Shown: positions 13,057-24,649 of the stretch, in pieces
Numbering within the stretch: the stretch's first letter is position 1
Layout of the letters: each line of letters begins with the position of its first letter
NCBI GenBank assembly: GCA_003433295.1
Contig: CP016202.1
Location: 1,164,315-1,203,993, forward strand
DNA: 39,679 bases
From: Eubacterium minutum ATCC 700079
Lineage (GTDB): Bacteria > Bacillota > Clostridia > Peptostreptococcales > Anaerovoracaceae
Reading direction: 5' to 3'
Position numbers and translations under genes: made by a program
Notes under the pieces: generated by a model
Database searches by the model: none
The model's input: only the letters and a program-made list of their open reading frames with translations
Told to the model about the DNA's origin: nothing

Positions 13057-16000
13057 ATGAAAAAGAGAAACAACCCCATGCATCATATAACGCATCCGGG
13101 TCTTGTGAAGAAGAACATTTTAACTTTACTTATAATAAGCTGCATGATTTTCTGCGGCATGAACGTGAACCTGCAGAGATCGCACGCATATACGGATCCG
13201 TACGATGCGCTCAGTGACCTTTCTATCAGTGTCACCACCCGCAGCGGTACGGTTATGAATAACGGCGACGTGTTCAACCTGCCCGCGCAAGAGGTCAATC
13301 TGAAACAAGTTGACTTGGCATTTACCGTGACCCAGGACGGCACGTTGAAAGCCGGCGACAAAATCAGGATACCGGTTGAACTCACAAACAACGCAAATGC
13401 GACATACTATGCCAACCTCGGTTCGGGCGTGGATGAAAAGATACAGGGCGTGGGAAGTATAAAGTTTGAGCATCCCGCACCCGACAAACTTGCGTACGTA
13501 ATAACCATCGACAGTGATTTCGGCTCCAAGCCGGCGGGGTTTCAGCGTGCGGCAGCGGTTACTCAGAAAGCTGCGACAGGCGCAAATTTCAAAGCAAAAT
13601 CCAGTAAATCCAATGTGGTTTTGAAGATCGACGGTTCCACGTTCAGTTTCAAACCTGTTCCGAGGCAATTCCCTAAAACAAGCGGGCCTTTTACCTCGTA
13701 CAACATACTGAACAGCACCGCCGCAAACCTCATAAATGTAGGTACTTCTCTCGGCGATGCGAACTACTATAACAACCTGCTCGGTACCGGAAATCCGGGA
13801 GAAACCGGCATCCCGCACGGTCAGTTCATTGTAATCAAGAGGGTCAAAGTGACGCAGGGATCGGAAATCCTGAAAGCAAACATCAAACCGAACATGATAA
13901 CCAGTACGCTCACCATAAGTGAGGACGGAACATACATGGTAAAGGGCGATACATCGACTTCGATCGCGCTCACAAGCCTCGCTCCGAAAAATATAACACT
14001 TCCCGCCGATGCGACAGACGAACAGATCATCAGCGCGCTCAAATCGGCAGGTAAAAACGCAAGAGCGGTGATAAAGAACAGCGACGGAACCTACACTCTT
14101 GCCACCAATTTGGGCAAGCTTCGCGGCCCGGATGCGACAACTTATCACGATTTCCGCCCTCAGGACGACTTCGGAACGTTCGGAGATCAGTTCCAGGAGA
14201 TTGACAGAACGGATGCCGTAAACAACATTCTGAATGCAAAACTGGCTACCGCCAGTGCCCTGCAGGGGTTCGGAGTGTCTGCAGAAATCCGGTTCACAAG
14301 TGCTTCGGAAGCAAATCATATTTCTTCTGTTTCAAAGCACTATGATGTGCCGGACAACGGTTCCGCAACGCTATTCAAGAGTGAGAACAACACAGCTCAT
14401 ACGACTCCTTCCGTCGCGCGTTCCGCCGGGCAGAGCAAAATAACCGTGCGCCATGTGGATACGGACGGTCACGAAATAGAGGTTCAGGATTTTAAGTATG
14501 GCTATTATCCGGGCAACGGACTTAAACCGACATCTCCGGATTTTCCGGCGGCACCGAAAACAATCGCGGACTACACTCTTGTAACGGAGGCCAACAGTAT
14601 AGCGAGCGTCCCCGGAACGCAGCTCACCGCAGGGGGCAACATAGCTTTTGAAAGCAACGACAAAAATTTCTATTTTGTTTATGCAAGAAACAAATCGAAA
14701 GCCGAAGTCGCGTATATTGACGATACGACGGGCGGAACCGTACTTCACACTGAACATCTCGAAGGAACCTACGGCAGTACGAGCACTTACAGAACAACCG
14801 ACAAAATCAACGAATATAAGAATCAGGGTTATGAAAAGGTTTCCGACAACTATCCGGCGGGCGGGGTGCAATTTAATGCACAGTTGCAGAAATTTGAGGT
14901 TCACCTGAAACACAAGGAAGTTGAAAGCACCGAAACCAAAAATGTAAAACTTACCGTAAGATACAGCGGAGCCGGGAGCAAAACGCCTCCGGACAATGTA
15001 CAGAATGCTGTCTGGACACGAAAAATCAAAACAGATAAAGTTACTAATGCGGTTACGGAGATCCTGCCTTGGACGCCTGACAAGGTCATGTACAACGAGG
15101 TACCTTCCCCTCCTGTCGCAGGCTATATGCCGGACTTGCAGACAGTTCCCGCGGAAGCCGTGACCCAAAGCGATATAGTCAGAAACGTCGTATATACCGG
15201 TCAAATTCAGAAAGTCACCTACACCGTAATAGACGATACCGACGGGAGTAAACTGAAGGATAAAGAACCGCTCGTCAGCGGAAACTCCGACAAGCCGCTC
15301 CCCGCATCGGCACAGGGAACTTACGACAACATAATAAAGAGCTATGAAGACAACAACTATGTGCTCGTATCCAAAGATCCTCTTCCCGCAAACTTTGACG
15401 ATGACACGACGGTCGACCAGAACGTGACAGTTCATCTGCGGCACAAAACAGAGGAAAAAACATACGACAAAGAATCCAAACTCACCGTTCGTTATCACGG
15501 TGCGGGAAGCAATACTCCGCCGAATAATGTACAGAAAGTAAAATGGACCCGCAAGGTTAAAGTCGATAAGGTAACAGGTACGGAAACAGAAACCGTGCCA
15601 TGGACACCGGCCAAAAATTCATATGATGAAGTTCTTTCACCGGTTATACCCGGCTATACCGCGGATCCTCTAAAAGTTCCGGCAGAGACCGTGACTCAGG
15701 ACGATATATATAAAGATGTCAATTACAGAGGAGACGGTCAGCACGTGACCTATACCGTAATTGACGAGACCGAAAACAAGACGCTTGAAGATTCTTCAAT
15801 GCTGGCCAGCGGACCGTCCGACACCAATCTGCCGGCAAGCGCACAGACTGATTATGAGCAGGTTGTCAAAGGATATGAGAATCAGGGATATGAACTCGTA
15901 TCCAAGGATTCCCTGCCCGCAAAGTTCGACAATGATACCGCCGTTGACCAGAACGTCAAAATACGATTGAAGCATGGAACAAAAATCGAAGCGGAAGAAA

Positions 16001-16647
16001 AAAACGTTACGCTGACCGTGCATTACCACGGCGCCGGGAACCAAACGCCCCCGGACAACGTCCAGCACGCGAAATGGACACGTTCTGTGACCAAGGACAA
16101 GGTCACGGGTAGCGAGATCTCCGCGACACAGTGGATTTCCGACAAAGCAAAATATAATAAGGTGGATTCTCCCGTTATATCGGGATATACCGCAGATATC
16201 AGATCGATAACCGAGGAAACCGTGACGATGATGAATATAGTCAGGCACGTCAATTACAGTCCGGTTCCCGCGCCGACCCCGACCCCAAATAAACCGGGCG
16301 GTCCGGTACCGAACAGTCCTGACAATCCAAAGCCCGGCACACCGGCAACGCCTAATACGCCGCAAAAGCCTAAACCGAAAACTCCCCCGACAAAGGGAAC
16401 GGTTAAGAAAACGGCTAAAAAGAAGACTCCCGTTAAACAGGAGCAAGTGTCGGAAGCGCGTAAAAAACATGCGGGAAATCTCAAAGATCCCGACAAGAAA
16501 AAGGTTTCACGGTCAAACGACCCGGGACAACCGAAAACCGGAGACAATACGAACTTAATCCTGTATGCAGGGCTGCTGATCACCGTTGCGCTTACGCTTA
16601 CGATCCTGCTCCTGTTGCGGAAAAGAAATCAAAAGAACAATAACTAA
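13057..16647 (+). CDS. Large cell-wall-anchored mucin-binding-type adhesin
   Basis: 1196 residues, exported and wall-anchored. Residues 1-44 are a long signal peptide (basic N-region, core ILTLLIISCMIFCG, cut expected after RSHA). Residues 45-455 form a unique N-terminal region with no recognised family. A MucBP-like unit (ITVRHVDTDGHEIEV...) covers about 461-545 and a second, VAYIDDTTGGTVL..., about 548-625. Then a repeat array of exact 177-residue period alternates a Mub-B2-like part (starting 629, 806, 983; LTVRYHGAG, TPPDNVQ, TVTQ-type segments) and a MucBP-like part (719, 896; VTYTVIDDTDG). A Pro-rich stalk begins near 1068, followed by a basic linker. The sorting signal is QPKTG (1158-1162), a membrane helix and the basic tail RKRNQKNNN. 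Likely role: adhesion to mucin or host glycans. The sortase is not in the window. Confidence 0.88.
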   Translation: MKKRNNPMHHITHPGLVKKNILTLLIISCMIFCGMNVNLQRSHAYTDPYDALSDLSISVTTRSGTVMNNGDVFNLPAQEVNLKQVDLAFTVTQDGTLKAGDKIRIPVELTNNANATYYANLGSGVDEKIQGVGSIKFEHPAPDKLAYVITIDSDFGSKPAGFQRAAAVTQKAATGANFKAKSSKSNVVLKIDGSTFSFKPVPRQFPKTSGPFTSYNILNSTAANLINVGTSLGDANYYNNLLGTGNPGETGIPHGQFIVIKRVKVTQGSEILKANIKPNMITSTLTISEDGTYMVKGDTSTSIALTSLAPKNITLPADATDEQIISALKSAGKNARAVIKNSDGTYTLATNLGKLRGPDATTYHDFRPQDDFGTFGDQFQEIDRTDAVNNILNAKLATASALQGFGVSAEIRFTSASEANHISSVSKHYDVPDNGSATLFKSENNTAHTTPSVARSAGQSKITVRHVDTDGHEIEVQDFKYGYYPGNGLKPTSPDFPAAPKTIADYTLVTEANSIASVPGTQLTAGGNIAFESNDKNFYFVYARNKSKAEVAYIDDTTGGTVLHTEHLEGTYGSTSTYRTTDKINEYKNQGYEKVSDNYPAGGVQFNAQLQKFEVHLKHKEVESTETKNVKLTVRYSGAGSKTPPDNVQNAVWTRKIKTDKVTNAVTEILPWTPDKVMYNEVPSPPVAGYMPDLQTVPAEAVTQSDIVRNVVYTGQIQKVTYTVIDDTDGSKLKDKEPLVSGNSDKPLPASAQGTYDNIIKSYEDNNYVLVSKDPLPANFDDDTTVDQNVTVHLRHKTEEKTYDKESKLTVRYHGAGSNTPPNNVQKVKWTRKVKVDKVTGTETETVPWTPAKNSYDEVLSPVIPGYTADPLKVPAETVTQDDIYKDVNYRGDGQHVTYTVIDETENKTLEDSSMLASGPSDTNLPASAQTDYEQVVKGYENQGYELVSKDSLPAKFDNDTAVDQNVKIRLKHGTKIEAEEKNVTLTVHYHGAGNQTPPDNVQHAKWTRSVTKDKVTGSEISATQWISDKAKYNKVDSPVISGYTADIRSITEETVTMMNIVRHVNYSPVPAPTPTPNKPGGPVPNSPDNPKPGTPATPNTPQKPKPKTPPTKGTVKKTAKKKTPVKQEQVSEARKKHAGNLKDPDKKKVSRSNDPGQPKTGDNTNLILYAGLLITVALTLTILLLLRKRNQKNNN
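14941..16257 (+). repeat. 531-bp coding repeats in the adhesin
   Basis: The protein repeats with an exact 177-residue (531-bp) period: unit 1 from 14941, unit 2 from 15472, and a last partial unit (B2-like half only) from 16003. Anchors are the LTVRY/LTVRY/LTVHY strands at residues 632, 809 and 986, and VTYTVIDD/VTYTVIDE at about 720 and 897. The copies have diverged in DNA, so the array is old, not a recent duplication. Confidence 0.85.
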
Positions 16648-16783: not shown

Positions 16784-19036
16784 TTATTCCTCATCTATGC
16801 CTTTGAGGTGTCCGCCCGGAGGTAATTCTCCGCGTCTTCTCATAGCTTCTTCCGCAAGGAATGTTGCAACGTCTATACCGTGTGAATCTCTTCCGAAACC
16901 CTCATCTATACCGGTTGCACGAGCGTCCTCAGGGGAAACCTGTGTTCCGCCGGCAGCAACGATAACCTTATCTCTGATTCCTTTTTCTATCGCAAGCTCA
17001 TTGATCCTCTTCATGTTCTTGTAATGGATGTTGTCATGAGAGATTATCGTCGAAGCAAGTATAGCGTCCGCGTCGAGCTCCACGGCAGCGTCCACGAGTT
17101 TTTCCACAGGCACGGAAGTTCCAAGGTAGTTAACTTCTATACCCCACTTCTCTATTCCGCCATGCTTGATGTTGATGATCTCGCGCAATCCCACGGAGTG
17201 TTCGTCATCGCCCACCGTTCCGCAAACGACTCTCATATGATGATCCTTGAACTCCTCAAAGAGTACTGAATCAGCGAGGTGATGAGGTGGCGGCGGCAAT
17301 ACCAGCGAGTCGGGGTCTATGTCAAATGTAAGTCTTCCTTTGACTTCGATCCTTGTACCCTCGGATGGATGCATCATTTCCTTTGAAATAACTTCCGGAT
17401 TTTCCAGACCCATTTTCTCGGCAACCTGAAGTCCCGTGGCTTCCGCCGTTCTGACATTTGCAGGGATCATCATGGTCAGCATTACGATACCGTCTCCGCA
17501 CCATTCCATCTCAGGGATTATTGCATCGCCGTCGAGATATTTCTTAACCTTGTCAAGTCTGATATCAACGGTATCCGTTTCGTCAAGCTCGTCTATGTAG
17601 ACGATCTTGCTTCTGTCCTCAAAGGTGCAACCTCCGATAAGTGCCGCAGGATCGTCGGGATCTCCGCCGTACTGTTCAACGTTGTTGTATCCGTAATGTG
17701 CCGTTACCGGTGCCATGTAATCTTCTTCTCTCGGGAATATGAATCCATAGCCTACGCCGCCTTTGATCTTTCTTGCGATACCGTCGCCGTTTCTTGCCGG
17801 ATATTTTGCCGAGTCAACGAAGAATCCCTGTTCAACAGCCTCAAAGTAGCCGCCCGCTTCCACGATTTCCATCATAAACAGTGTGGCTCTTTCTTTCAGA
17901 TCCCTGACCATCTCCACGAGAGGTCCGTCTTTCTTGAGTTCAACAAGTTCGTTGAAACCGTCAAGATATACATATGCCTGCTTGGCGTTGTCGATGGCTT
18001 CCATGTTGTATATGTGCCAAGGAACGTTTCTTCCCTCGTCCGGCGTAATCGTGGACTGTATGTCTGCACTCGTGAGCTTGGAAATCACCATGTTCATGAT
18101 ATGCGTTACAGTAGCCTCTCTTACGGACGAGCAGACATACTTCGTATTCTGCTGCGCTCTCATCTTGTATCTGTTACAGATATCCCTCAAAGCCACCGCG
18201 TAAGGCAGGTCGAGGTACATTGCGGGCGCAGGCGCCGCATCCGGAGGTACCGTTGACAAACTGATGTTTTCAGGCAAAATGCCGACTTTCTCCGAAAACA
18301 GCGAGTTGATAGCATGCTGCACGATAAGCTCAGGCATTACTTTCCATGCCTCTCTTGCCGTAGCATTTGCGTTGTGAGCACCGTCAATCTGTAAAATTTC
18401 AGCCCATGCGAGAACTTTCTTGGATTCGCAGGCGTCTACAAAAGATCTCACACAGTTGATATCTCTGTAAAGAACGTTGTACTGCGGATCCTGATGGGCT
18501 CCGTTGATTCCCTCTTCCGCAAACATTACCGCAACGTCAGGTCCGGCTACGCCGGATACGTATGAATGGTAGTTCAGTTCACGGCCGACTTCATCTTCTA
18601 TCAGATCCAGCGCTTTTCTCTGCGCTCTGACCTGTTTTCTCGTAATAGGGACACCGCCTATTCCCTGCGGGGTACCTTCCATCAGTCCGTCGATGTGAGA
18701 CTGACCCATGTGGCGGATAACCATTATGTGATCCGCGCCGTGCCATGCGGCCATTCTCATTCTTCTGATGTCATCCTCAAAGCGTCCCGACGCGATCTCG
18801 GTCGTGATTACCGGCTGCGGCTGAGGGTCGATGTTGTCAAAGAACTTCGCGGGAGGCAGTCCGATGCCCTGTTTAAGCGGCTTTGACATATCGTGGAACG
18901 TGAAAGGTCCCATCGTCAGATTCGGAGCGGCCTCTCTCCAGTGCCAGCCGCGTCTTCTCGGTTCATAATGTTCAAGATCCTTGAGAATCTCGCGAACATC
19001 AAGCTTTTCATTCTTGTTCAGTACCATATCTGCCAT
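16784..19036 (-). CDS. oraE: D-ornithine 4,5-aminomutase, large subunit (B12- and PLP-binding)
   Basis: 750 residues. It converts D-ornithine to (2R,4S)-2,4-diaminopentanoate by radical migration of the terminal amino group, using adenosylcobalamin and PLP. The C-terminal third is a B12-binding Rossmann domain with the base-off motif D-x-H-x-x-G in CGTVGDDEHSVGLREI, followed by STIISHDN and VIVAAGGTQVSPEDA. The N-terminal barrel (GIGLPPAKFFDNIDPQPQPVITTEI, HMGQSHIDGLMEGTPQGIGG) matches the lysine/ornithine aminomutase family. The start at 19036 is 1 nt after the oraS stop and has GGAGG upstream; a longer open frame reaching 19336 only overlaps oraS in another frame and is rejected. It forms a heterotetramer with OraS. 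It is the last gene of the core operon here, since an unrelated block follows. Confidence 0.95.
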   Translation of the reverse strand: MADMVLNKNEKLDVREILKDLEHYEPRRRGWHWREAAPNLTMGPFTFHDMSKPLKQGIGLPPAKFFDNIDPQPQPVITTEIASGRFEDDIRRMRMAAWHGADHIMVIRHMGQSHIDGLMEGTPQGIGGVPITRKQVRAQRKALDLIEDEVGRELNYHSYVSGVAGPDVAVMFAEEGINGAHQDPQYNVLYRDINCVRSFVDACESKKVLAWAEILQIDGAHNANATAREAWKVMPELIVQHAINSLFSEKVGILPENISLSTVPPDAAPAPAMYLDLPYAVALRDICNRYKMRAQQNTKYVCSSVREATVTHIMNMVISKLTSADIQSTITPDEGRNVPWHIYNMEAIDNAKQAYVYLDGFNELVELKKDGPLVEMVRDLKERATLFMMEIVEAGGYFEAVEQGFFVDSAKYPARNGDGIARKIKGGVGYGFIFPREEDYMAPVTAHYGYNNVEQYGGDPDDPAALIGGCTFEDRSKIVYIDELDETDTVDIRLDKVKKYLDGDAIIPEMEWCGDGIVMLTMMIPANVRTAEATGLQVAEKMGLENPEVISKEMMHPSEGTRIEVKGRLTFDIDPDSLVLPPPPHHLADSVLFEEFKDHHMRVVCGTVGDDEHSVGLREIINIKHGGIEKWGIEVNYLGTSVPVEKLVDAAVELDADAILASTIISHDNIHYKNMKRINELAIEKGIRDKVIVAAGGTQVSPEDARATGIDEGFGRDSHGIDVATFLAEEAMRRRGELPPGGHLKGIDEE

Positions 19037-19037
19037 C

Positions 19038-19409
19038 TTACTTGCCCTCCTTACTGAAAATCGCCACCGCATCGTCCCAGTATTCTCCCTGTGCCAATGC
19101 TGCCGAAGCTTCACGGATAGAAATTCCCTTATCCTTTGAAATTCTGTAAACGATATGACCCGTACCGTGCCCCATGAGGCCTCTGTCAATCGCACCTTCC
19201 ACAATCTTCTGCGTATCCAGCGACGATACTCCCATGCGCAGGAGAACCGCTCTTTCAACTGAAGGCGTGGTATTCTTCGTTCCAAGTTCAAGCAACGGAT
19301 CCACGACTTTGGAGCACATTTCCCAGAACTTGTCATAGAGCTGCTCGTCTGTAAGATCTGCGATACCTTTCTCTACTCTTCTTTTTGCAAAATCGTCTTC
19401 TCTTATCAT
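19038..19409 (-). CDS. oraS: D-ornithine 4,5-aminomutase, small subunit
   Basis: 123 residues, the expected size. The sequence MIREDDFAKRRVEKGIADLT begins like OraS, and GLMGHGTGHIVYRISKDKGISIREA is the recognisable core. The small subunit is needed for assembly and cofactor handling by OraE. It starts after AAAGGAAG, 60 bp downstream of ortB, and its stop is 1 nt before the oraE start, so the subunits are translationally coupled. Confidence 0.94.
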   Translation of the reverse strand: MIREDDFAKRRVEKGIADLTDEQLYDKFWEMCSKVVDPLLELGTKNTTPSVERAVLLRMGVSSLDTQKIVEGAIDRGLMGHGTGHIVYRISKDKGISIREASAALAQGEYWDDAVAIFSKEGK

Positions 19410-19469: not shown

Positions 19470-20885
19470 TTACAGTCCCAATTCTTTCAATGCAGCTTTT
19501 ACAAAATCCGCATCGGTTTTGGTTTCCTCGGCCAGGAACTGCAAATCGGCTTCCGTAGGCTTAGCTCCTTCGGCTTTTTTCACAGCTTTTTTTATCAACG
19601 ATTTTCTGAAACGGTTCAGGTCCGCCTCCTGAATCCTTATCATGCCCGGATCTGCCGGCAAAACGAGATTTTCGCCCGGCTTGTCCTCTTCGACAGGATT
19701 TCCGAAGCGAATATCGATTCCGTTCTCTCTTGCGAATGCCATCTGGGGCTGAATATGTTTTCCCGCTCCTGTATATTCCGTTTCGCTTATCACGATCACA
19801 GCGTCCTCCGGAAGCTCCTGCGCAAGCGAGAATGCTGCGGCAAGCGCCGTATTTCCGGCAGGTCCTCTTTCTATTCCTTCCAGATTCGCGAGCGCCTCCG
19901 TCATGTACATGACCTCACCCTGCTTTACCGTCACGTAGCGATCCATGTATCTGAGCGGTCTTGCGGCACTCCTCGGAACATCGGAGTGATCCGGATCCGT
20001 AGCGTAAGGAACACCGAATCCCGTGTGACCTGTAGTGCAGGACTTCATGTTGAACTGACGATCCGACGCCATGGAAAGGCCTGTCAAATCTATAGATGCG
20101 GCAACCATGGTAGTGTCCACCGATCCCGCTTTCTGAAGACCGCGCGCGGTTCCCGTCATCATTCCGCCGCCGGCATTGGTGCAGACCACCATCTCAGGGT
20201 CTTTGCCCACGATTTCTCTGCACTGCATTGCGATTTCATATCCCAGGGTCTCAATTCCGGCAATCCCGAACGGTGAATACAGCGAAGCGTTGAAATAACC
20301 CGTGTCCTCAAGCACGGAAAGGAAAGTGTAGAAAAGTTCGGGTCCCACCGTAAGCTGGATAACTTCCGCACCGTAAGCCTCGCACTTTCTTGCTTTCTCA
20401 ATAATCTCAGGCTGTCCTATCTGTTTGGAATCGTAGCATTCCTGAACGATGATGCAGTCCAGTCCCTGCATTGCCGCCTGTGATGCGACCGCAGAGCCGT
20501 AGTTTCCCGAGGTTGCGGCGATTACACCTTTGTAGCCCAGCTTCTTGGCATGAGCAACCGCACATGCAGCCCTCCTCGCCTTGAAACTGCCGGACGCATT
20601 GCATGCTTCATCTTTCGCAAAAATTCTTGCACCATATCCCGGCTTCGCATACTTCCGCGACAGCGCCGATATATTTCTCAATTCTATCAGAGGTGTGTTT
20701 CCGACATCGGTTCTCGACTGGATTTTATTGATCTCGTCCAGCGTATATCCCGTGTCCTTCATCAGGGCTTCGTAATCAAACGCTATTGAGCCCGACTCAT
20801 ACCCCGCATAGTCCAAACCCAATGCCTTCTTCTGAATTTCATTGGATCTTCCCATTACGGACTTATAATCTTTTGCCAGTGCCAT
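19470..20885 (-). CDS. ortB: 2-amino-4-ketopentanoate thiolase, beta subunit (PLP)
   Basis: 471 residues, fold-type II PLP enzyme related to threonine synthase. The Schiff-base Lys is K102 in NASGSFKARRA; AATSGNYGSAVASQAA is the serine-loop region near the PLP; CTNAGGGMMTGTARG supplies the glycine-rich phosphate-binding loop. With OrtA it cleaves 2-amino-4-ketopentanoate with CoA to give acetyl-CoA and D-alanine, the last step of oxidative ornithine breakdown. Its ATG shares one base with the ortA stop (TAATG). Family assignment is strengthened by exact operon order ord-ortA-ortB-oraS-oraE. Confidence 0.94.
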   Translation of the reverse strand: MALAKDYKSVMGRSNEIQKKALGLDYAGYESGSIAFDYEALMKDTGYTLDEINKIQSRTDVGNTPLIELRNISALSRKYAKPGYGARIFAKDEACNASGSFKARRAACAVAHAKKLGYKGVIAATSGNYGSAVASQAAMQGLDCIIVQECYDSKQIGQPEIIEKARKCEAYGAEVIQLTVGPELFYTFLSVLEDTGYFNASLYSPFGIAGIETLGYEIAMQCREIVGKDPEMVVCTNAGGGMMTGTARGLQKAGSVDTTMVAASIDLTGLSMASDRQFNMKSCTTGHTGFGVPYATDPDHSDVPRSAARPLRYMDRYVTVKQGEVMYMTEALANLEGIERGPAGNTALAAAFSLAQELPEDAVIVISETEYTGAGKHIQPQMAFARENGIDIRFGNPVEEDKPGENLVLPADPGMIRIQEADLNRFRKSLIKKAVKKAEGAKPTEADLQFLAEETKTDADFVKAALKELGL

Positions 20886-21184
20886 TACTTGCCCTCTCCT
20901 TTCATTATGCCTCTAAGCTGCTTGTCTATCTCTATTATTTCAGGAACGAACTTGCCGTAACTGTGGGTATAGTATGGTCCCACTTCAACGAGGGTCCCTT
21001 TCTCTCTGCGTCCGACTATGGTTTCAATTTCAACTTCATCGCCGACATTTGCATCGCTGAGTAAAGTTCCCTTTGTCCACATTTCCAGATCGCAGGCTTT
21101 CGTATCGTCCGGTAGCTTTGCAGTTCTCTCATCCGCTTTCAAAACCACCTTGTGTATGCGTACCCAATCGCCTTTTTTCGCCAT
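20885..21184 (-). CDS. ortA: 2-amino-4-ketopentanoate thiolase, alpha subunit
   Basis: About 99 residues (MAKKGDWVRIHKVVL...). It is a small beta-rich protein with no catalytic motif of its own; OrtA homologues are found only beside ortB and are required for thiolase activity. Segments such as GDWVRIHKVVLKADER and VGPYYTHSYGKFVPEI match the family. The ATG at 21184 is preferred over the GTG three bases earlier because AAGGAGG lies 5 nt before it. It starts 10 bp after ord and overlaps ortB by one base. Confidence 0.92.
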   Translation of the reverse strand: MAKKGDWVRIHKVVLKADERTAKLPDDTKACDLEMWTKGTLLSDANVGDEVEIETIVGRREKGTLVEVGPYYTHSYGKFVPEIIEIDKQLRGIMKGEGK

Positions 21185-21194
21185 CACGTCCTCC

Positions 21195-22256
21195 TTATTT
21201 TACCAGTTTCTTGTCTTCATCGATCAGATCTCTAAAGTCTCCCATGATTGCATGAGGTACAGGAATATCGATCATCGTTCTCAGACCAGGTTTCGCGTTG
21301 ATAACGTGAGGAATGCAGTTCATGATCATAGCCATCGTTCCGATTCCGCCTTCGATTTCAGGGCTGTTTGCCATATTTACAGGAGGAACCGCATCGAGAA
21401 TTACATAATCTCCGGTGTCAACGCCAACCTGTTCAGGTTCAATCTGCTGTGGATGATCCATGTCGAGTTTTCTCTCGCCGTCAACTATTCCCCAGCCTTT
21501 CATTGCAACTCCGGCAACGCTTCCGGCAGGAGCAAATCCGTAAGGGGATTTTCTGTCAACGTCCGTAACTATAGGTTCCATGTCCTGTCCGAACTCGTCG
21601 AGTTTCCATCCCAAAGCTTCGCACATCATGCCTACGGATTCAGCAAATCCAACGTGTCCGGCCATAGTTCCGTCAGCCTTTCTTGCATTGAATTCATCTA
21701 CGGAAATACCGATGCCCTGTTCTTCCATTACGGCAGGTCCGAAAGGTGAAAGCGAGTTCACTCTCCTCGATGTTATGTGGTTTACCTCTTCACAAGCTGC
21801 CGTCCAGAGGATAACGAGAAGATCCATGATCAGGCCCGGATTGATACCTGTACCCATTACCGACACGCCGTTCTTCTTCGCGCATTCGTCGAGCTTCTTC
21901 GCAAGTTCAGGTTCCTGTGCCTGTGGATAAGCCATTTCCTCCGCGGAAGTAATTACGTTCATGCCTTTTTCCATAACGAAAACGAGTTTGTCGTATACGT
22001 CCTTCGTGAAAGAGTTGGTGCAAACCACAACGACATCGGCAGCACCCGGAACGATAACATCTTCAGGTGTTCCGACTATTACGTCAGGACGATCCCCCTG
22101 CTGTATTCCCGGAACCACGTCATAGAGATTCTTGCCGATCTTGTCGCCTATATCAATACCGCCAACGATATCGACGCCTTTTTTCTTAGCCAGCATTTTT
22201 CCGATTCCGCCGCCCATTGCTCCTAATCCCCAAAGGATTACTTTTACATTTTTCAT
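21195..22256 (-). CDS. ord: 2,4-diaminopentanoate dehydrogenase
   Basis: 353 residues from the ATG at 22256, chosen because AAGGAGAG precedes it and the protein then begins directly with the Rossmann motif (VKVILWGLGAMGGGIGKML). An open frame extends 33 codons upstream without support. The enzyme oxidises 2,4-diaminopentanoate to 2-amino-4-ketopentanoate and ammonia with NAD(P)+. Family features include VVVCTNSFTKDVYDKL (strand following the cofactor site), MGTGINPGLIMDLL and a dihydrodipicolinate reductase-like C-terminal domain. It is the promoter-proximal gene of the operon, behind a sigma-54 promoter about 180 bp upstream. Confidence 0.95.
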   Translation of the reverse strand: MKNVKVILWGLGAMGGGIGKMLAKKKGVDIVGGIDIGDKIGKNLYDVVPGIQQGDRPDVIVGTPEDVIVPGAADVVVVCTNSFTKDVYDKLVFVMEKGMNVITSAEEMAYPQAQEPELAKKLDECAKKNGVSVMGTGINPGLIMDLLVILWTAACEEVNHITSRRVNSLSPFGPAVMEEQGIGISVDEFNARKADGTMAGHVGFAESVGMMCEALGWKLDEFGQDMEPIVTDVDRKSPYGFAPAGSVAGVAMKGWGIVDGERKLDMDHPQQIEPEQVGVDTGDYVILDAVPPVNMANSPEIEGGIGTMAMIMNCIPHVINAKPGLRTMIDIPVPHAIMGDFRDLIDEDKKLVK

Positions 22257-22432: not shown

Positions 22433-22448
22433 AGCAAGTTCCGTGCCA
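22433..22448 (-). promoter_or_regulatory. Sigma-54 (-24/-12) promoter of the ornithine operon
   Basis: Minus strand TGGCACGGAACTTGCT: the GG of the -24 element and GC of the -12 element with the exact consensus TGGCACG-N4-TTGCT. No other sequence in the region comes close. Transcription would start near 22421-22423, giving a leader of about 165 nt before ord. A sigma-54-dependent activator gene lies directly upstream. Sigma-54 itself (rpoN) is not in the window. Confidence 0.9.
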
Positions 22449-22454
22449 GATTCG

Positions 22455-22491
22455 GACGCCAAAAAGTTTTGTCATAAAACTTTTTGGCGTC
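22455..22491. repeat. Perfect 16-bp hairpin just upstream of the sigma-54 promoter
   Basis: GACGCCAAAAAGTTTT (22455-22470) and AAAACTTTTTGGCGTC (22476-22491) form a perfect stem with the loop GTCAT. It sits about 35-70 bp upstream of the predicted start of transcription, between the promoter and the distal palindromes. No U-run follows in either direction, so a terminator role is not obvious. It could be a binding dyad, a DNA-bending or cruciform element, or a remnant of a repeat. Confidence 0.7.
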
Positions 22492-22760
22492 ACCTTACGG
22501 ATTCATCTACGTGCCCGCTATGTGTCCATAAATGCCCCAAACTTCTCTGAATCCGTTTCTCGTTGCCATGATCTGCCACAGAGTTCCGATGAGTTTTTTA
22601 TTTTTGTTCCCCCGACATCAGTTTTTTTATTTTTTTAGTGCACTGCACACTGTTTTCTTTTTCACTCCTCTTAGGTGCTTTTCCTCTTTTTCTCTTATTC
22701 CCGCCTAATCTGTCTTTTCCTCCATTCCGCTGCATTTTACAAGAACGACCCGAACAAAAA

Positions 22761-22823
22761 ATTACGCCGCGGTGCAAAATACTTTGCGTTTGTATGGCAA
22801 AATATTTTGCACTGTGGCGTAAT
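22761..22823 (-). promoter_or_regulatory. Paired palindromes (upstream activator sites) within a large inverted repeat that may also terminate the activator gene
   Basis: Two palindromes of the form TGCAAA-N4-TTTGCA lie here: TGCAAAATACTTTGCG (22773-22788) and GGCAAAATATTTTGCA (22796-22811), with starts 23 bp apart. They are about 340-370 bp upstream of the sigma-54 promoter, the usual range for enhancer-like sites. They are nested in a longer inverted repeat: 22761-22781 and 22803-22823 pair in 19 of 21 positions. On the minus strand the right-hand end is followed by TTTTTTG, so the transcript of the activator gene (stop at 22840) would end in a terminator-like stem. Both roles are possible at once. 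Confidence 0.65.
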
Positions 22824-22839
22824 GGTTACACCGTTTGTC

Positions 22840-24246
22840 TTACGGTTTTATCTCATATTTTTTGAGCTTGTGCTGCAAAGTCTGCCTCTTGATCTGCAGG
22901 TTCTCCGCCCCTTTCGATACGTTGCCGCCAGCTTCTATCATTGCATTCTTTATTATCGCCTTCTCTATCTCCGCCATGTACACATCCAAAGGTTCTCTGC
23001 CGTCCCATTTTTCTATATCTTTTCCCATTCCTCCGACTTTCTTGGGCATTTGTAGAAGTTTTTCCGTGAGGACATGCTCATTTTCCGCCATTGAAACCGA
23101 CTGCATTATGATATTCTCAAGCTCGCGTACATTTCCCGGATAGTTATATTCCATAAGTTTTTTCATTGCTCTGTCTGAAACCATCCAAAGTTCTTTGCCG
23201 AAAACTTTATCGTGCTTCTCCAGAAATCTTTCAACCAAAACCGGGATGTCATCTTTTCTGCTGCTCAGATCGGGTATGATCAATCCTACCACATTAAGCC
23301 TGTAATACAGATCTTTCCTTAATTTCCCTTCCTCTATCAGTTTTTCCGCAGGTTCGTTGACCGTCGCAATTATTCGCACGTCTATCGGGATGTCTTTGGT
23401 GCCGCCCACACGCCTTATGTAATCTTCCTGGAGAACTCTGAGAAGCTTGCTTTGGAGCTCATAAGGCATGGCGCTGATCTCGTCGAGCAACAGAGTTCCG
23501 CCATTGGCCTGCTCAAAAAGTCCCGCTCTGTCCACGGCTCCCGTAAAACCTCCTTTTGCGGTGCCGAACAGAATCCCCTCGAGCAGCGACTCCGGAAGCG
23601 CTGCGCAGTTTTGTGCAAGAAAAGGTTTGCCCGCTCTGCTCCCGCCGTAATGTATGCTCTGGGCAAACAGTTCTTTGCCCGTTCCGGTTTCTCCGTATAT
23701 AAAAACAGATGCGTTGTTCTTTGCGGCTCTTTTCGCTCTCTCCACAACCCCTCTGAACTCGCGGTTCTCTCCGATTATGTCATCGAATGTATACCTCTTT
23801 ATCTTCTTGGTTCCGCTTTTAGCCGCGCCCTGCGGCTGCGGCAATGTATCCTCCCGCAGTTTCAAAATGGTATCGCTCATCGACCTTATATCGGTTATGT
23901 CCCTTGCCACTTCGACGGCGGCTATCGTTTTTCCGTCAAGTTTAACCGGTACGGTGCTGTTCAGCGTGGTGACCTCTTTGCCGTACAGATTGGTGTATGT
24001 CTGCTGTTTGTTTCTGGTCGCAAGTCCCTTTCTGAGTGCCCGGTACATAGTACTTTCATCAAGGCCGACTCTCGGAAACGCCATATTGAAAGGCTTTCCT
24101 ATAACGTCTGAAACCTTTATTTGTTCATTTTTCGCCATCTCGTCGCTGTAAAAAAGACCTATGCCTTTTTCATCAACTATGTAGACGCCCTCCTGCAAGA
24201 GGTCTATGAGTTCCTCTATTATCTTTCTGTATCCGTTGTCGTCCAT
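22840..24246 (-). CDS. Sigma-54-dependent PAS-AAA+-Fis transcriptional activator
   Basis: 468 residues from the ATG at 24246, which follows AAGGAG at 7 nt; an open frame of 81 more codons upstream has no support and would cross the promoter. Order: PAS sensor (about 10-120; DLLQEGVYIVDEKG, DVIGKPF, GKTIAAVEVARDITD), AAA+ domain (about 154-385), Fis-type HTH (about 429-468; GGNVSKGAENLQIKRQTLQHKLKKY). Walker A is GETGTGKE (185-192), Walker B is GGTLLLDEIS (249-258), and the R-finger region is RKDLYYRLNV. The sigma-54 contact loop reads GGFTGA (232-237) instead of GAFTGA. The layout is RocR-like, consistent with sensing an amino acid such as ornithine through the PAS domain (inference). It probably activates the ord operon and, by its own palindrome, limits its own expression. 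Confidence 0.92.
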   Translation of the reverse strand: MDDNGYRKIIEELIDLLQEGVYIVDEKGIGLFYSDEMAKNEQIKVSDVIGKPFNMAFPRVGLDESTMYRALRKGLATRNKQQTYTNLYGKEVTTLNSTVPVKLDGKTIAAVEVARDITDIRSMSDTILKLREDTLPQPQGAAKSGTKKIKRYTFDDIIGENREFRGVVERAKRAAKNNASVFIYGETGTGKELFAQSIHYGGSRAGKPFLAQNCAALPESLLEGILFGTAKGGFTGAVDRAGLFEQANGGTLLLDEISAMPYELQSKLLRVLQEDYIRRVGGTKDIPIDVRIIATVNEPAEKLIEEGKLRKDLYYRLNVVGLIIPDLSSRKDDIPVLVERFLEKHDKVFGKELWMVSDRAMKKLMEYNYPGNVRELENIIMQSVSMAENEHVLTEKLLQMPKKVGGMGKDIEKWDGREPLDVYMAEIEKAIIKNAMIEAGGNVSKGAENLQIKRQTLQHKLKKYEIKP

Positions 24247-24268
24247 TCTTCCACTCCTTTTCGTTACG

Positions 24269-24297
24269 ATAGTACCATATTTCAGGGTGCGGTGCAA
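24269..24297 (-). promoter_or_regulatory. Sigma-A promoter of the activator gene
   Basis: Minus strand: TTGCAC (24292-24297), exactly 17 bp, TACTAT (24269-24274), about 25 bp before the Shine-Dalgarno sequence of the activator. The -35 hexamer lies inside the palindrome at 24291-24310, so a protein bound there should block RNA polymerase. Confidence 0.7.
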
Positions 24298-24310
24298 ACA
24301 TTTTTGCACC
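24291..24310. promoter_or_regulatory. Operator-like perfect palindrome over the activator's -35 box
   Basis: GGTGCAAACATTTTTGCACC: an 8-bp perfect inverted repeat with a 4-nt centre, sharing the TGCAAA-N4-TTTGCA core with the two sites at 22773-22811. The shared core and position suggest the activator binds here and represses its own gene (inference). Confidence 0.7.
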
Positions 24311-24649
24311 ATAGATGTTACTTGCCCCGGGCAGGGGTGGCACCCGCAAGTCAGGTCCTCATCCCTGCCCGGGGCTACTGAACCATTCAAGGCTTCAATA
24401 CAAAAGCAATAGCCCGATTCCTTGCAACAATATCCTCCTCGCAGAGAGTCAAAAGGCTCACTCGCGGAGGTGGTCTTTTGTCCGCCCAAACCACTGTCGT
24501 TTGCCGATGAATGTTCAAACTAAAACAAGTATGTTTATACTATAATAAATGGGGTATTAAATAAATGTATGGGCTTATGGTTGTGATGATTTTTATGTGA
24601 AAAAACGGACATAAATGGAAATCAAGCAAATCCGGGGGAGGGTTGATTT
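24311..24649. other. Intergenic region with a GC-rich structured element and a promoter for the lipoprotein gene
   Basis: A perfect 13-bp GC-rich inverted repeat, GCCCCGGGCAGGG (24324-24336) with CCCTGCCCGGGGC (24363-24375), encloses 26 nt. A second imperfect hairpin lies at about 24433-24470 (CCTCC...GCGGAGG on the plus strand, with inner GAGTC/GGCTC). Both are upstream of the activator promoter and outside the lipoprotein transcript, so they are not leaders of either gene. They may be a small RNA gene or an old repeat. A plus-strand -10 region, TATACTATAAT (24536-24546), probably serves the lipoprotein gene; its -35 is poor (TTCAAA). Confidence 0.5.

What the first reader, a model, noticed from the sequence alone, without database searches (positions are those of the whole stretch)
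22433..24310. A shared palindrome links sigma-54 activation of ornithine catabolism with autoregulation of its activator
Seen: a consensus -24/-12 promoter (TGGCACGGAACTTGCT) before ord; two TGCAAA-N4-TTTGCA-type palindromes about 350 bp upstream of it; the same palindrome, perfect with GG/CC flanks, covering the -35 box of a TTGCAC-17-TACTAT promoter in front of the PAS-AAA+-Fis gene. Known: sigma-54 activators bind paired dyads 100-400 bp upstream. Inference: the activator switches on ord-ortA-ortB-oraS-oraE and represses itself. I know of no described regulator for the oxidative ornithine pathway, so this may be new.
Basis: partly seen in the sequence, partly recalled or inferred. Interest (0 to 1): 0.8.

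Follow-up and report, generated by a model that had tools for sequence, protein, structure and literature searches.

The report
Ornithine-gene enhancer doubling as terminator
The two DNA palindromes that probably let a regulator switch on ornithine-degradation genes also look like the stop signal that ends the regulator's own transcript, and a third copy sits where it could make the regulator switch itself off.

Summary
A -24/-12 promoter precedes ord, two one-mismatch TGCAAA-N4-TTTGCA palindromes lie 332-355 bp upstream of it, and the genome's only perfect copy covers the -35 of the PAS-AAA+-Fis gene.

Comparative genomics supports activation and autorepression. In the window's family (Anaerovoracaceae) 78 of 81 loci carry the operator; 64 of those 78 have a -10-like box exactly 17 bp beyond it. 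The pair stays with the sigma-54 promoter in rearranged loci, and 10 of 10 named genomes without a strong regulator match lack it.

The claim that no regulator is described is wrong: OrdR was predicted for ord in 2019 and a -24/-12 promoter mapped in C. difficile in 2020.

The two palindromes are the arms of a 27-bp hairpin with a TTTTTT tail just after the regulator's stop codon. In other families of the order, 42 of 47 pairs lying behind the regulator carry the T-run, and the stem covaries: an enhancer-terminator fusion. The window's family mostly lacks the terminator form and has the -35 operator; the window has both. No function was tested.

The parts
22840..24246 (-). Regulator gene, proposed ordR orthologue: PAS, AAA+ sigma-54 activation domain, Fis-type HTH
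   Evidence: translation; PF00158 3.5e-62, PF02954 4.1e-11, PAS 1.3e-06
24291..24310 (.). Autoregulatory operator GGTGCAAACATTTTTGCACC, perfect TGCAAA-N4-TTTGCA palindrome
   Evidence: site with at most 1 mismatch in 78 of 81 family loci
24292..24297 (-). -35-like box TTGCAC, overlapping the operator
   Evidence: sequence; spacing to a -10-like box conserved in 64 of 78 loci
24269..24274 (-). -10-like box TACTAT, 17 bp after TTGCAC
22796..22811 (.). Enhancer palindrome 1 (promoter-distal UAS), TGCAAAATATTTTGCC on the minus strand, also 5' arm of the hairpin
22773..22788 (.). Enhancer palindrome 2 (promoter-proximal UAS), CGCAAAGTATTTTGCA on the minus strand, also 3' arm of the hairpin
22755..22823 (-). 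Terminator-like hairpin: 27-nt arms 89% complementary, 9-nt gap, then TTTTTTG; starts 16 bp after the regulator's stop codon
   Evidence: 101-nt stretch -37.3 kcal/mol, z -5.85; -33.5, z -6.9
22433..22448 (-). Sigma-54 -24/-12 promoter of ord, TGGCACGGAACTTGCT
   Evidence: an element of this kind found in 65 of 66 named loci that hold the regulator
21195..22256 (-). ord, 2,4-diaminopentanoate dehydrogenase
   Evidence: NF040740 2.1e-149
20885..21187 (-). ortA
   Evidence: NF040739 1.3e-40
19470..20885 (-). ortB
   Evidence: NF040741 7e-244
19038..19409 (-). oraS, D-ornithine 4,5-aminomutase small subunit
   Evidence: PF16552 2.4e-48
16784..19021 (-). oraE (the open frame extends to 19336; the family match starts at residue 106)
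   Evidence: NF040743 E 0

Best explanation
The regulator is an OrdR-type sigma-54 enhancer-binding protein. As a dimer it binds TGCAAA-N4-TTTGCA. Two dimers on the pair at 22773-22811 form the enhancer that loops to the -24/-12 promoter at 22433-22448 and switches on ord-ortA-ortB-oraS-oraE. One dimer at 24293-24308 covers the -35 of the regulator's own promoter and represses it. The enhancer pair is also the stem of an intrinsic terminator that ends the regulator's transcript just after its stop codon, so one sequence works as a DNA enhancer and as an RNA stop signal that insulates ord from upstream transcription. SHOWN by sequence and comparison: sites, promoters, hairpin, T-run, conservation, covariation. 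INFERRED: that this protein binds these sites, that sigma-54 drives ord, that the -35 site represses, that the hairpin terminates. The inducer is unknown; ornithine or a derivative sensed by the PAS domain is a guess.
For: Family survey, 81 loci including the window. Operator with at most 1 mismatch upstream of the regulator in 78 of 81 (15 of 16 genera), and a -10-like box at one exact spacing in 64 of those 78 (13 genera). UAS pair in 75 tandem loci plus 3 divergent ones. In one search, 67 of 69 scored pairs lie 93-198 bp from the best -24/-12 match; the exceptions are the window (332) and L076, where the scan picked a match on top of the pair. Three loci with the regulator divergent from ord keep the pair on the ord side and the single site at the regulator's -35; L121, with 1,059 bp between the genes, has a degenerate pair (3 and 4 mismatches) 136 bp before the promoter and not at the regulator's stop. 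Named loci with at least 350 bp upstream of ord: regulator in the fetched stretch 66, pair 61, sigma-54 element 65; not in it 12, pair 1, element 1. Whole-genome search of those 12: in 10 there is no match, or only matches of about 231 bits or less over the AAA+ part, and 0 of 10 have the pair; two have a 54-56% regulator elsewhere, of which L219 has the pair and L221 does not. Own genome has rpoN. Terminator: window hairpin with TTTTTTG tail. Out of family, 42 of 47 tandem loci in 36 genera have at least 6 T in 8 bases after the second palindrome, against 0.10 elsewhere; N4 complementarity 3.49 of 4 against 1.96 shuffled. Covariation score 0.357 against 0.107 (sd 0.012) shuffled and at most 0.11 for slid pairs. 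Where another gene directly precedes ord (serine hydroxymethyltransferase in L302 and L318, EAL/GGDEF protein in L349 and L355), the pair still follows that gene, with 5-7 T in 8.
Against: No binding, expression or termination data. In the window's own family terminator form is not the rule: T-run in 10 of 75, the same as background; with a 14-base frame 6 of 75, the window not among them because its stem reaches further out. The window's pair is imperfect and lies 332 bp from the -24 element, far for its family, although L360, L364 and L372 outside it are at 339-347. The window's element has C, not T, before TGGCA, and so fails the strict clostridial consensus, which finds one place elsewhere in the genome. 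The window's -35/-10 boxes match the sigma-70 consensus poorly (7 of 12 by my count) and one search did not list them. L099 and L141 have the pair but no operator, L078 only a 2-mismatch one. Five named loci with the regulator have no pair: L189, L194 (Flavonifractor plautii), L203, L229, L249. Out of family, 22 of 80 loci have no pair at the threshold used; nine of these have regulator and -24/-12 element (L310, L311, L326, L327, L328, L335, L352, L357, L361), six are the Clostridioides-like loci with one recognisable site, and seven have no regulator in the fetched stretch. L362 has a T-run though no open frame was found just before it, and divergent L118 reaches 6 T in 8 without a continuous run. 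Shuffles do not remove shared ancestry; one locus per genus was used in part to limit this.
Confidence: 0.78

Rival explanations
1. The two upstream palindromes are only the regulator gene's terminator and not an enhancer; resemblance to the -35 site is incidental.
For: They form a long hairpin with a T-run right after the stop codon, and in other families most have that form (42 of 47).
Against: In the window's family the pair persists in 75 tandem loci while the T-run is at background, 10 of 75. In divergent loci L116, L118, L125 and L367 the pair stays upstream of ord without a continuous T-run (L118 reaches 6 T in 8, the others 2-5). It is missing in 10 of 10 named genomes without a strong regulator match.
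Confidence: 0.05
2. The pair is only an enhancer; the hairpin is the automatic consequence of two nearby palindromes and ends no transcript in this organism.
For: Two copies of any palindrome can pair. Most of the window's family lacks the T-run.
Against: The window adds 10 paired flank positions within 12 beyond the palindromes and a TTTTTT tail, the longest extension of the 69 scored. Out of family the spacer N4 and the outer flank covary, which dimer binding should not need.
Confidence: 0.17
3. The site at the regulator's promoter activates or has no effect rather than repressing.
For: B. thuringiensis SoxR shows autoregulation with a sigma-54-linked positive component (PMC4941409, passages).
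Against: The site covers the -35 at fixed spacing from a -10-like box in 64 of 78 loci, the geometry of occlusion, and no -24/-12 element of at most 1 mismatch was found within 450 bp of it in this genome.
Confidence: 0.1

Closest known systems
OrdR, predicted sigma-54 activator of ord-ort-ora in Clostridiales (Nie 2019, PMC6615313; C. difficile promoter in PMC7438776)
   Same: Enhancer-binding protein beside ord, -24/-12 promoter, upstream activating sites, oxidative ornithine pathway.
   Different: A term search of PMC6615313 found no 'autoregul' and no 'terminator'. The OrdR motif itself is in a figure and supplement I could not see.
RocR of Bacillus subtilis
   Same: Sigma-54 activator of arginine/ornithine catabolism, UAS sites, negative autoregulation reported (review PMC4813224, passages); a PAS domain is reported for the B. 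thuringiensis RocR (PMC4428206, passages).
   Different: Controls the arginase route (rocABC, rocDEF), not ord/ora. Its UAS letters were not available, so motif identity was not tested.
SoxR of Bacillus thuringiensis
   Same: Sigma-54 activator whose one site serves target promoters and its own (PMC4941409).
   Different: One shared site, sarcosine catabolism; the word terminator does not occur in the paper's text.
Rho-independent (intrinsic) terminators
   Same: Hairpin directly followed by a T-run after a stop codon.
   Different: Stem letters are at the same time proposed protein-binding palindromes for the next operon; no Rfam family reaches its gathering score in the window.

Membership tests
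Sigma-54 enhancer-binding protein (bEBP) | AAA+ domain with Walker A and a GAFTGA-type loop | tested here: met
   PF00158 3.5e-62; GETGTGKE and GGFTGA present. GGFTGA replaces GAFTGA in 62 of 81 loci.
Sigma-54 enhancer-binding protein (bEBP) | sigma-54 encoded in the genome and a -24/-12 promoter at the target | tested here: met
   Sigma54_DBD match 1.1e-62; 22433-22448
Sigma-54 enhancer-binding protein (bEBP) | ATP-dependent activation of sigma-54 polymerase | not testable with these tools
   needs in vitro transcription
OrdR group | gene adjacent to ord and upstream activating sites before the ord sigma-54 promoter | tested here: met
OrdR group | orthology to C. difficile CD0441 | tested here: inconclusive
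OrdR group | published OrdR DNA motif | not testable with these tools
RocR-type autorepressed activator | same binding site at target enhancer and at own promoter | tested here: met
   (sequence only)
Intrinsic terminator | stable hairpin followed by T-run downstream of a gene | tested here: met
   for the window; 42 of 47 out-of-family tandem loci have the T-run
Intrinsic terminator | transcripts actually end there | not testable with these tools
   needs 3'-end mapping

The most novel reading that the evidence does not exclude
The enhancer-terminator is a true two-way switch: OrdR sitting on the pair alters elongation or termination at the end of its own gene, and transcription arriving from ordR strips OrdR off the enhancer, so regulator output and ord activation are coupled through one piece of DNA. 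Families without the terminator replaced this coupling by the -35 operator; the window's lineage has both.
Probability: 0.15. Interest if true: 0.78.

Novelty: new variant of a known kind. Interest (0 to 1): 0.52.

Why it matters
The regulator itself is a new member of a predicted group. What is unusual is that a bacterial enhancer and an intrinsic terminator seem to share the same letters, in 33 of 36 genera scored outside the window's family (joint criterion), with motif conservation and RNA pairing both visible in the alignment. If it works as proposed, it is a compact way to insulate a sigma-54 operon from upstream transcription. It would also mean that terminator predictions and binding-site predictions can hide each other at such places. 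Oxidative ornithine breakdown is linked to C. difficile colonisation (title and start of abstract of PMC8803604 in the listing), so how the operon is switched on is of practical interest.

Tried and rejected
Regulon beyond this locus: 12 places with at most one mismatch genome-wide equal the reversed-pattern control, and none but the pair lies near a -24/-12 element; rejected. Riboswitch in the 5' leader of ord: no Rfam match at gathering score anywhere in the window. The long gap between enhancer and promoter as a repeated mobile insert: 22449-22760 has no second full copy in the genome, only stretches of 16-31 bases besides its own palindrome matching itself. Palindrome 22455-22491 as a conserved element: 12 other loci of 81 hold some inverted repeat of at least 10 bp in that intergenic stretch, but none with these letters. 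Terminator-only and enhancer-only readings: see rivals. RocR site letters: not found by term search in the open papers tried; the PNAS paper on the rocG enhancer is not held. Prior description of an enhancer that is a terminator: nothing seen in the listings; that search is narrow (open-access library only, listings only).

Own errors: the sigma-54 scan tested the wrong columns and printed no promoters (corrected); one search crashed and was rerun; the structure was one column off (its +1 slide gave 90.5% paired) and was rerun; the L313 stretch had wrong coordinates and is disregarded.
Full report
WHAT IS THERE. On the minus strand the window carries a PAS-AAA+-Fis regulator (22840-24246), an intergenic stretch, and ord-ortA-ortB-oraS-oraE. 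The genome has rpoN and five strong Sigma54_activat matches among nine, this protein one of them. Named relatives of the locus include Hornefia butyriciproducens and Aminicella lysinilytica (the former is in Anaerovoracaceae).

IS IT CHANCE? Counting motifs does not decide it. The window holds 38 matches at up to 3 mismatches against 27.4 expected, and the genome has 12 places at up to 1 mismatch, the same as the reversed control. Position decides. Only one place is perfect, and it is on the regulator's -35. Of the 12 places, only the pair has a -24/-12 element of at most 1 mismatch within 450 bp. Against this, the strict consensus TTGGCAY-N5-TTGCW misses the ord element, which has C before TGGCA, and finds one place elsewhere.

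FAMILY SURVEY. A search of 296 genomes (drawn evenly from the family) found Ord above cut-off in 120 and a match to the regulator at E 1e-60 or better in 201, many of them clearly paralogues. I fetched 80 loci, 77 of them with both genes on one contig by the coordinates of those calls, and added the window: 81. The operator with at most 1 mismatch lies upstream of the regulator in 78 of 81, 15 of 16 genera; the exceptions are L078 (2 mismatches), L099 and L141. A -10-like hexamer starts at exactly the same place, 17 bp after the TTGCAC position of the site, in 64 of 78 loci and 13 genera; the next best offset has 19 loci. In 7 loci of two genera, mostly g19, a box sits closer (position 23), still next to the operator. 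The enhancer pair (spacing 21-23 bp as a rule) is present in 75 tandem loci and 3 divergent ones. Of the other three, L121 has a degenerate pair, and in L147 and L149 the fetched contig ends 5 and 50 bp after the regulator. By resampling, such a pair arises in 1 of 15,200 trials.

TESTS OF THE ENHANCER READING. (a) In L116, L118 and L125 the regulator faces away from ord; the pair stays next to the ord promoter and the single site stays at the regulator's -35. (b) In L121 the genes are 1,059 bp apart; a degenerate pair (3 and 4 mismatches) begins 136 bp before the sigma-54 promoter. (c) The named scan found 257 relatives of Ord and kept the best 80 (some are the same genomes as in the family set, so the sets are not independent). 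Of these, 78 have at least 350 bp before ord (L202 and L248 dropped; L248 has a -24/-12 match). With the regulator in the fetched stretch: 66, of which 61 have the pair and 65 a -24/-12 element. Without: 12, of which 1 has the pair and 1 the element. A whole-genome search of those 12 finds no match at 1e-60 in seven and only partial matches of about 231 bits or less in three; none of these ten has the pair. The other two have a 54-56% regulator elsewhere: L219 (Sedimentibacter saalensis, second ord copy) has the pair, L221 does not. Out of family, 12 of 80 loci had no regulator within the fetched stretch. Five of them have the pair (L302, L315, L318, L351, L362) and three have sites at wider spacing (L347, L359, L365). 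One search shows a 47% regulator 3-5 kb from ord for L347, L351, L359 and L365, and 47-48% ones elsewhere for L318 and L362. For L302 and L315 the best match is 42-43% and may be a paralogue. The pairless L306, L331 and L368 have only weaker or partial best matches (255-368 bits). Co-occurrence is therefore strong but not perfect.

AUTOREGULATION IS CLADE-BOUND. Named loci with regulators at least 58% identical to the window's have the operator in 34 of 35 readable cases, those at 50-58% in 4 of 21, those at 40-50% in 0 of 4. Outside the family, in 64 readable loci from 44 genera, only 3 have a site with at most 2 mismatches, and 1 with at most 1.

The two upstream palindromes are the arms of one inverted repeat, 27 nt per arm, 89% complementary, 9 nt apart. 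It begins 16 bp after the regulator's stop codon, and on the regulator's strand it is followed by TTTTTTG. The 101-nt stretch folds at -37.3 kcal/mol, z -5.85. Two palindromes always can pair, so I asked whether relatives show more than that. In the window's own family the T-run is mostly missing: at least 6 T in 8 in 10 of 75, control 0.10, although N4 complementarity is somewhat raised (2.56 of 4 against 1.94 shuffled) and 16 of 75, the window among them, pass a looser joint criterion. The window has the longest stem extension of the 69 loci scored, where 4 of 69 had both extended stem and T-run.

OUTSIDE THE FAMILY. A pair was found in 58 of 80. The 22 without are six of one Clostridioides-like genus with one recognisable site, seven with no regulator in the stretch, and nine with regulator and -24/-12 element. 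In 47 loci (36 genera) the pair lies within 110 bp of the regulator's stop, in 35 of them at -2 to 10 bp. Of these, 42 of 47 have the T-run (33 of 36 with one locus per genus) against 0.10-0.12 elsewhere in the same intergenic DNA; the joint criterion is met by 43 of 47. Complementarity between the two sites is 14.79 of 16 against 12.55 when partners are shuffled across genera. In the N4 spacer, which the palindrome motif leaves free, it is 3.49 of 4 against 1.96. Departures from the consensus in the first site are mirrored in the second in 38 of 53 cases, against 13 of 66 in the window's family. On an alignment of 37 sequences (36 genera plus the window) the stem is 92.3% paired, with changes on both sides at 11 of 20 pairs and a covariation score of 0.357, against 0.107 (sd 0.012) shuffled and at most 0.11 for slid partners; RNAalifold predicts the same helix, 17 pairs, unprompted. 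In the Clostridioides-like genus (L293-L298) one AGCAAA-N4-TTTGCT is followed by C and then 7-8 T.

NATURAL SWAPS. Where another gene directly precedes ord, the pair still follows that gene and carries T: serine hydroxymethyltransferase in L302 and L318 (6 and 7 T in 8), an EAL/GGDEF protein in L349 and L355 (5 and 6). L325, behind an unassigned open frame, has 7; L351, whose preceding open frame ends 116 bp away, has 4; L362 has 7 with no preceding open frame found. In the divergent loci L116, L125 and L367 there is no such run (5, 5 and 2); L118 reaches 6 in a broken stretch. The two functions thus largely separate in nature: enhancer without terminator (most of the window's family, divergent loci), and terminator of whichever gene comes first.

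MECHANISM. I propose: OrdR dimers on the pair activate ord through sigma-54; the same DNA, transcribed, forms the hairpin that ends ordR and keeps its transcription out of ord; in the window's family an OrdR dimer also blocks the ordR -35. The order-wide pattern suggests an exchange, terminator out and operator in, perhaps because a self-limited regulator gene needs less insulation. The window has both. That exchange may be a single ancestral event, so it is one observation, not many.

KNOWN AND NEW. OrdR with sigma-54 was predicted for ord in five species (PMC6615313: abstract, sections 6 and 17 and passages seen) and the C. difficile promoter mapped (PMC7438776: passages). Negative autoregulation is reported for RocR (PMC4813224, a review: passages) and SoxR (PMC4941409: passages). 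A term search of PMC8803604 for OrdR, sigma-54, SigL, regulator and CodY found none. No paper in the listings was seen to describe an enhancer that is also a terminator; the library is open access only. Hence: new variant of a known kind.

LIMITS. All evidence is sequence. Thresholds for calling a pair differ a little. Shuffles do not remove ancestry. Start codons and -10 boxes are predictions.

Noticed in passing
window 22455-22491: Perfect 16-bp inverted repeat (5-nt loop) close upstream of the -24 element; single copy in the genome, no locus of the family holds one with these letters, no T-run. Unexplained.
   Followed up: partly
window 22840-24246 (protein level): The sigma-54 contact loop reads GGFTGA instead of GAFTGA, as in 62 of 81 family loci; GSFTGA in 12, GAFTGA in 7.
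   Followed up: partly
window 24324-24375: GC-rich inverted repeat (16-nt arms, 94% complementary) just upstream of the regulator's operator, possibly a terminator of another transcript.
   Followed up: no
window 22449-22772: Enhancer-to-promoter distance (332 bp) is well above the 93-198 bp of family relatives; the extra DNA has no second full copy in the genome.
   Followed up: partly
L189, L194 (Flavonifractor plautii): Regulator and -24/-12 element beside ord but no recognisable TGCAAA-N4-TTTGCA pair; perhaps a changed motif.
   Followed up: no
L181, L187, L216, L226, L230, L233, L234, L237, L239, L243: ord loci in genomes without a strong regulator match have no pair and no -24/-12 match within 330 bp before ord; they must be controlled in another way.
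   Followed up: partly
L302, L315, L318, L349, L355: ord directly preceded by serine hydroxymethyltransferase (L302, L318; L315 has an open frame of the same length, not scanned) or EAL/GGDEF genes instead of the regulator, with the pair still in place.
   Followed up: partly
window 13057-16647: 1,196-residue open frame with an LPXTG anchor match, convergent with oraE.
   Followed up: no
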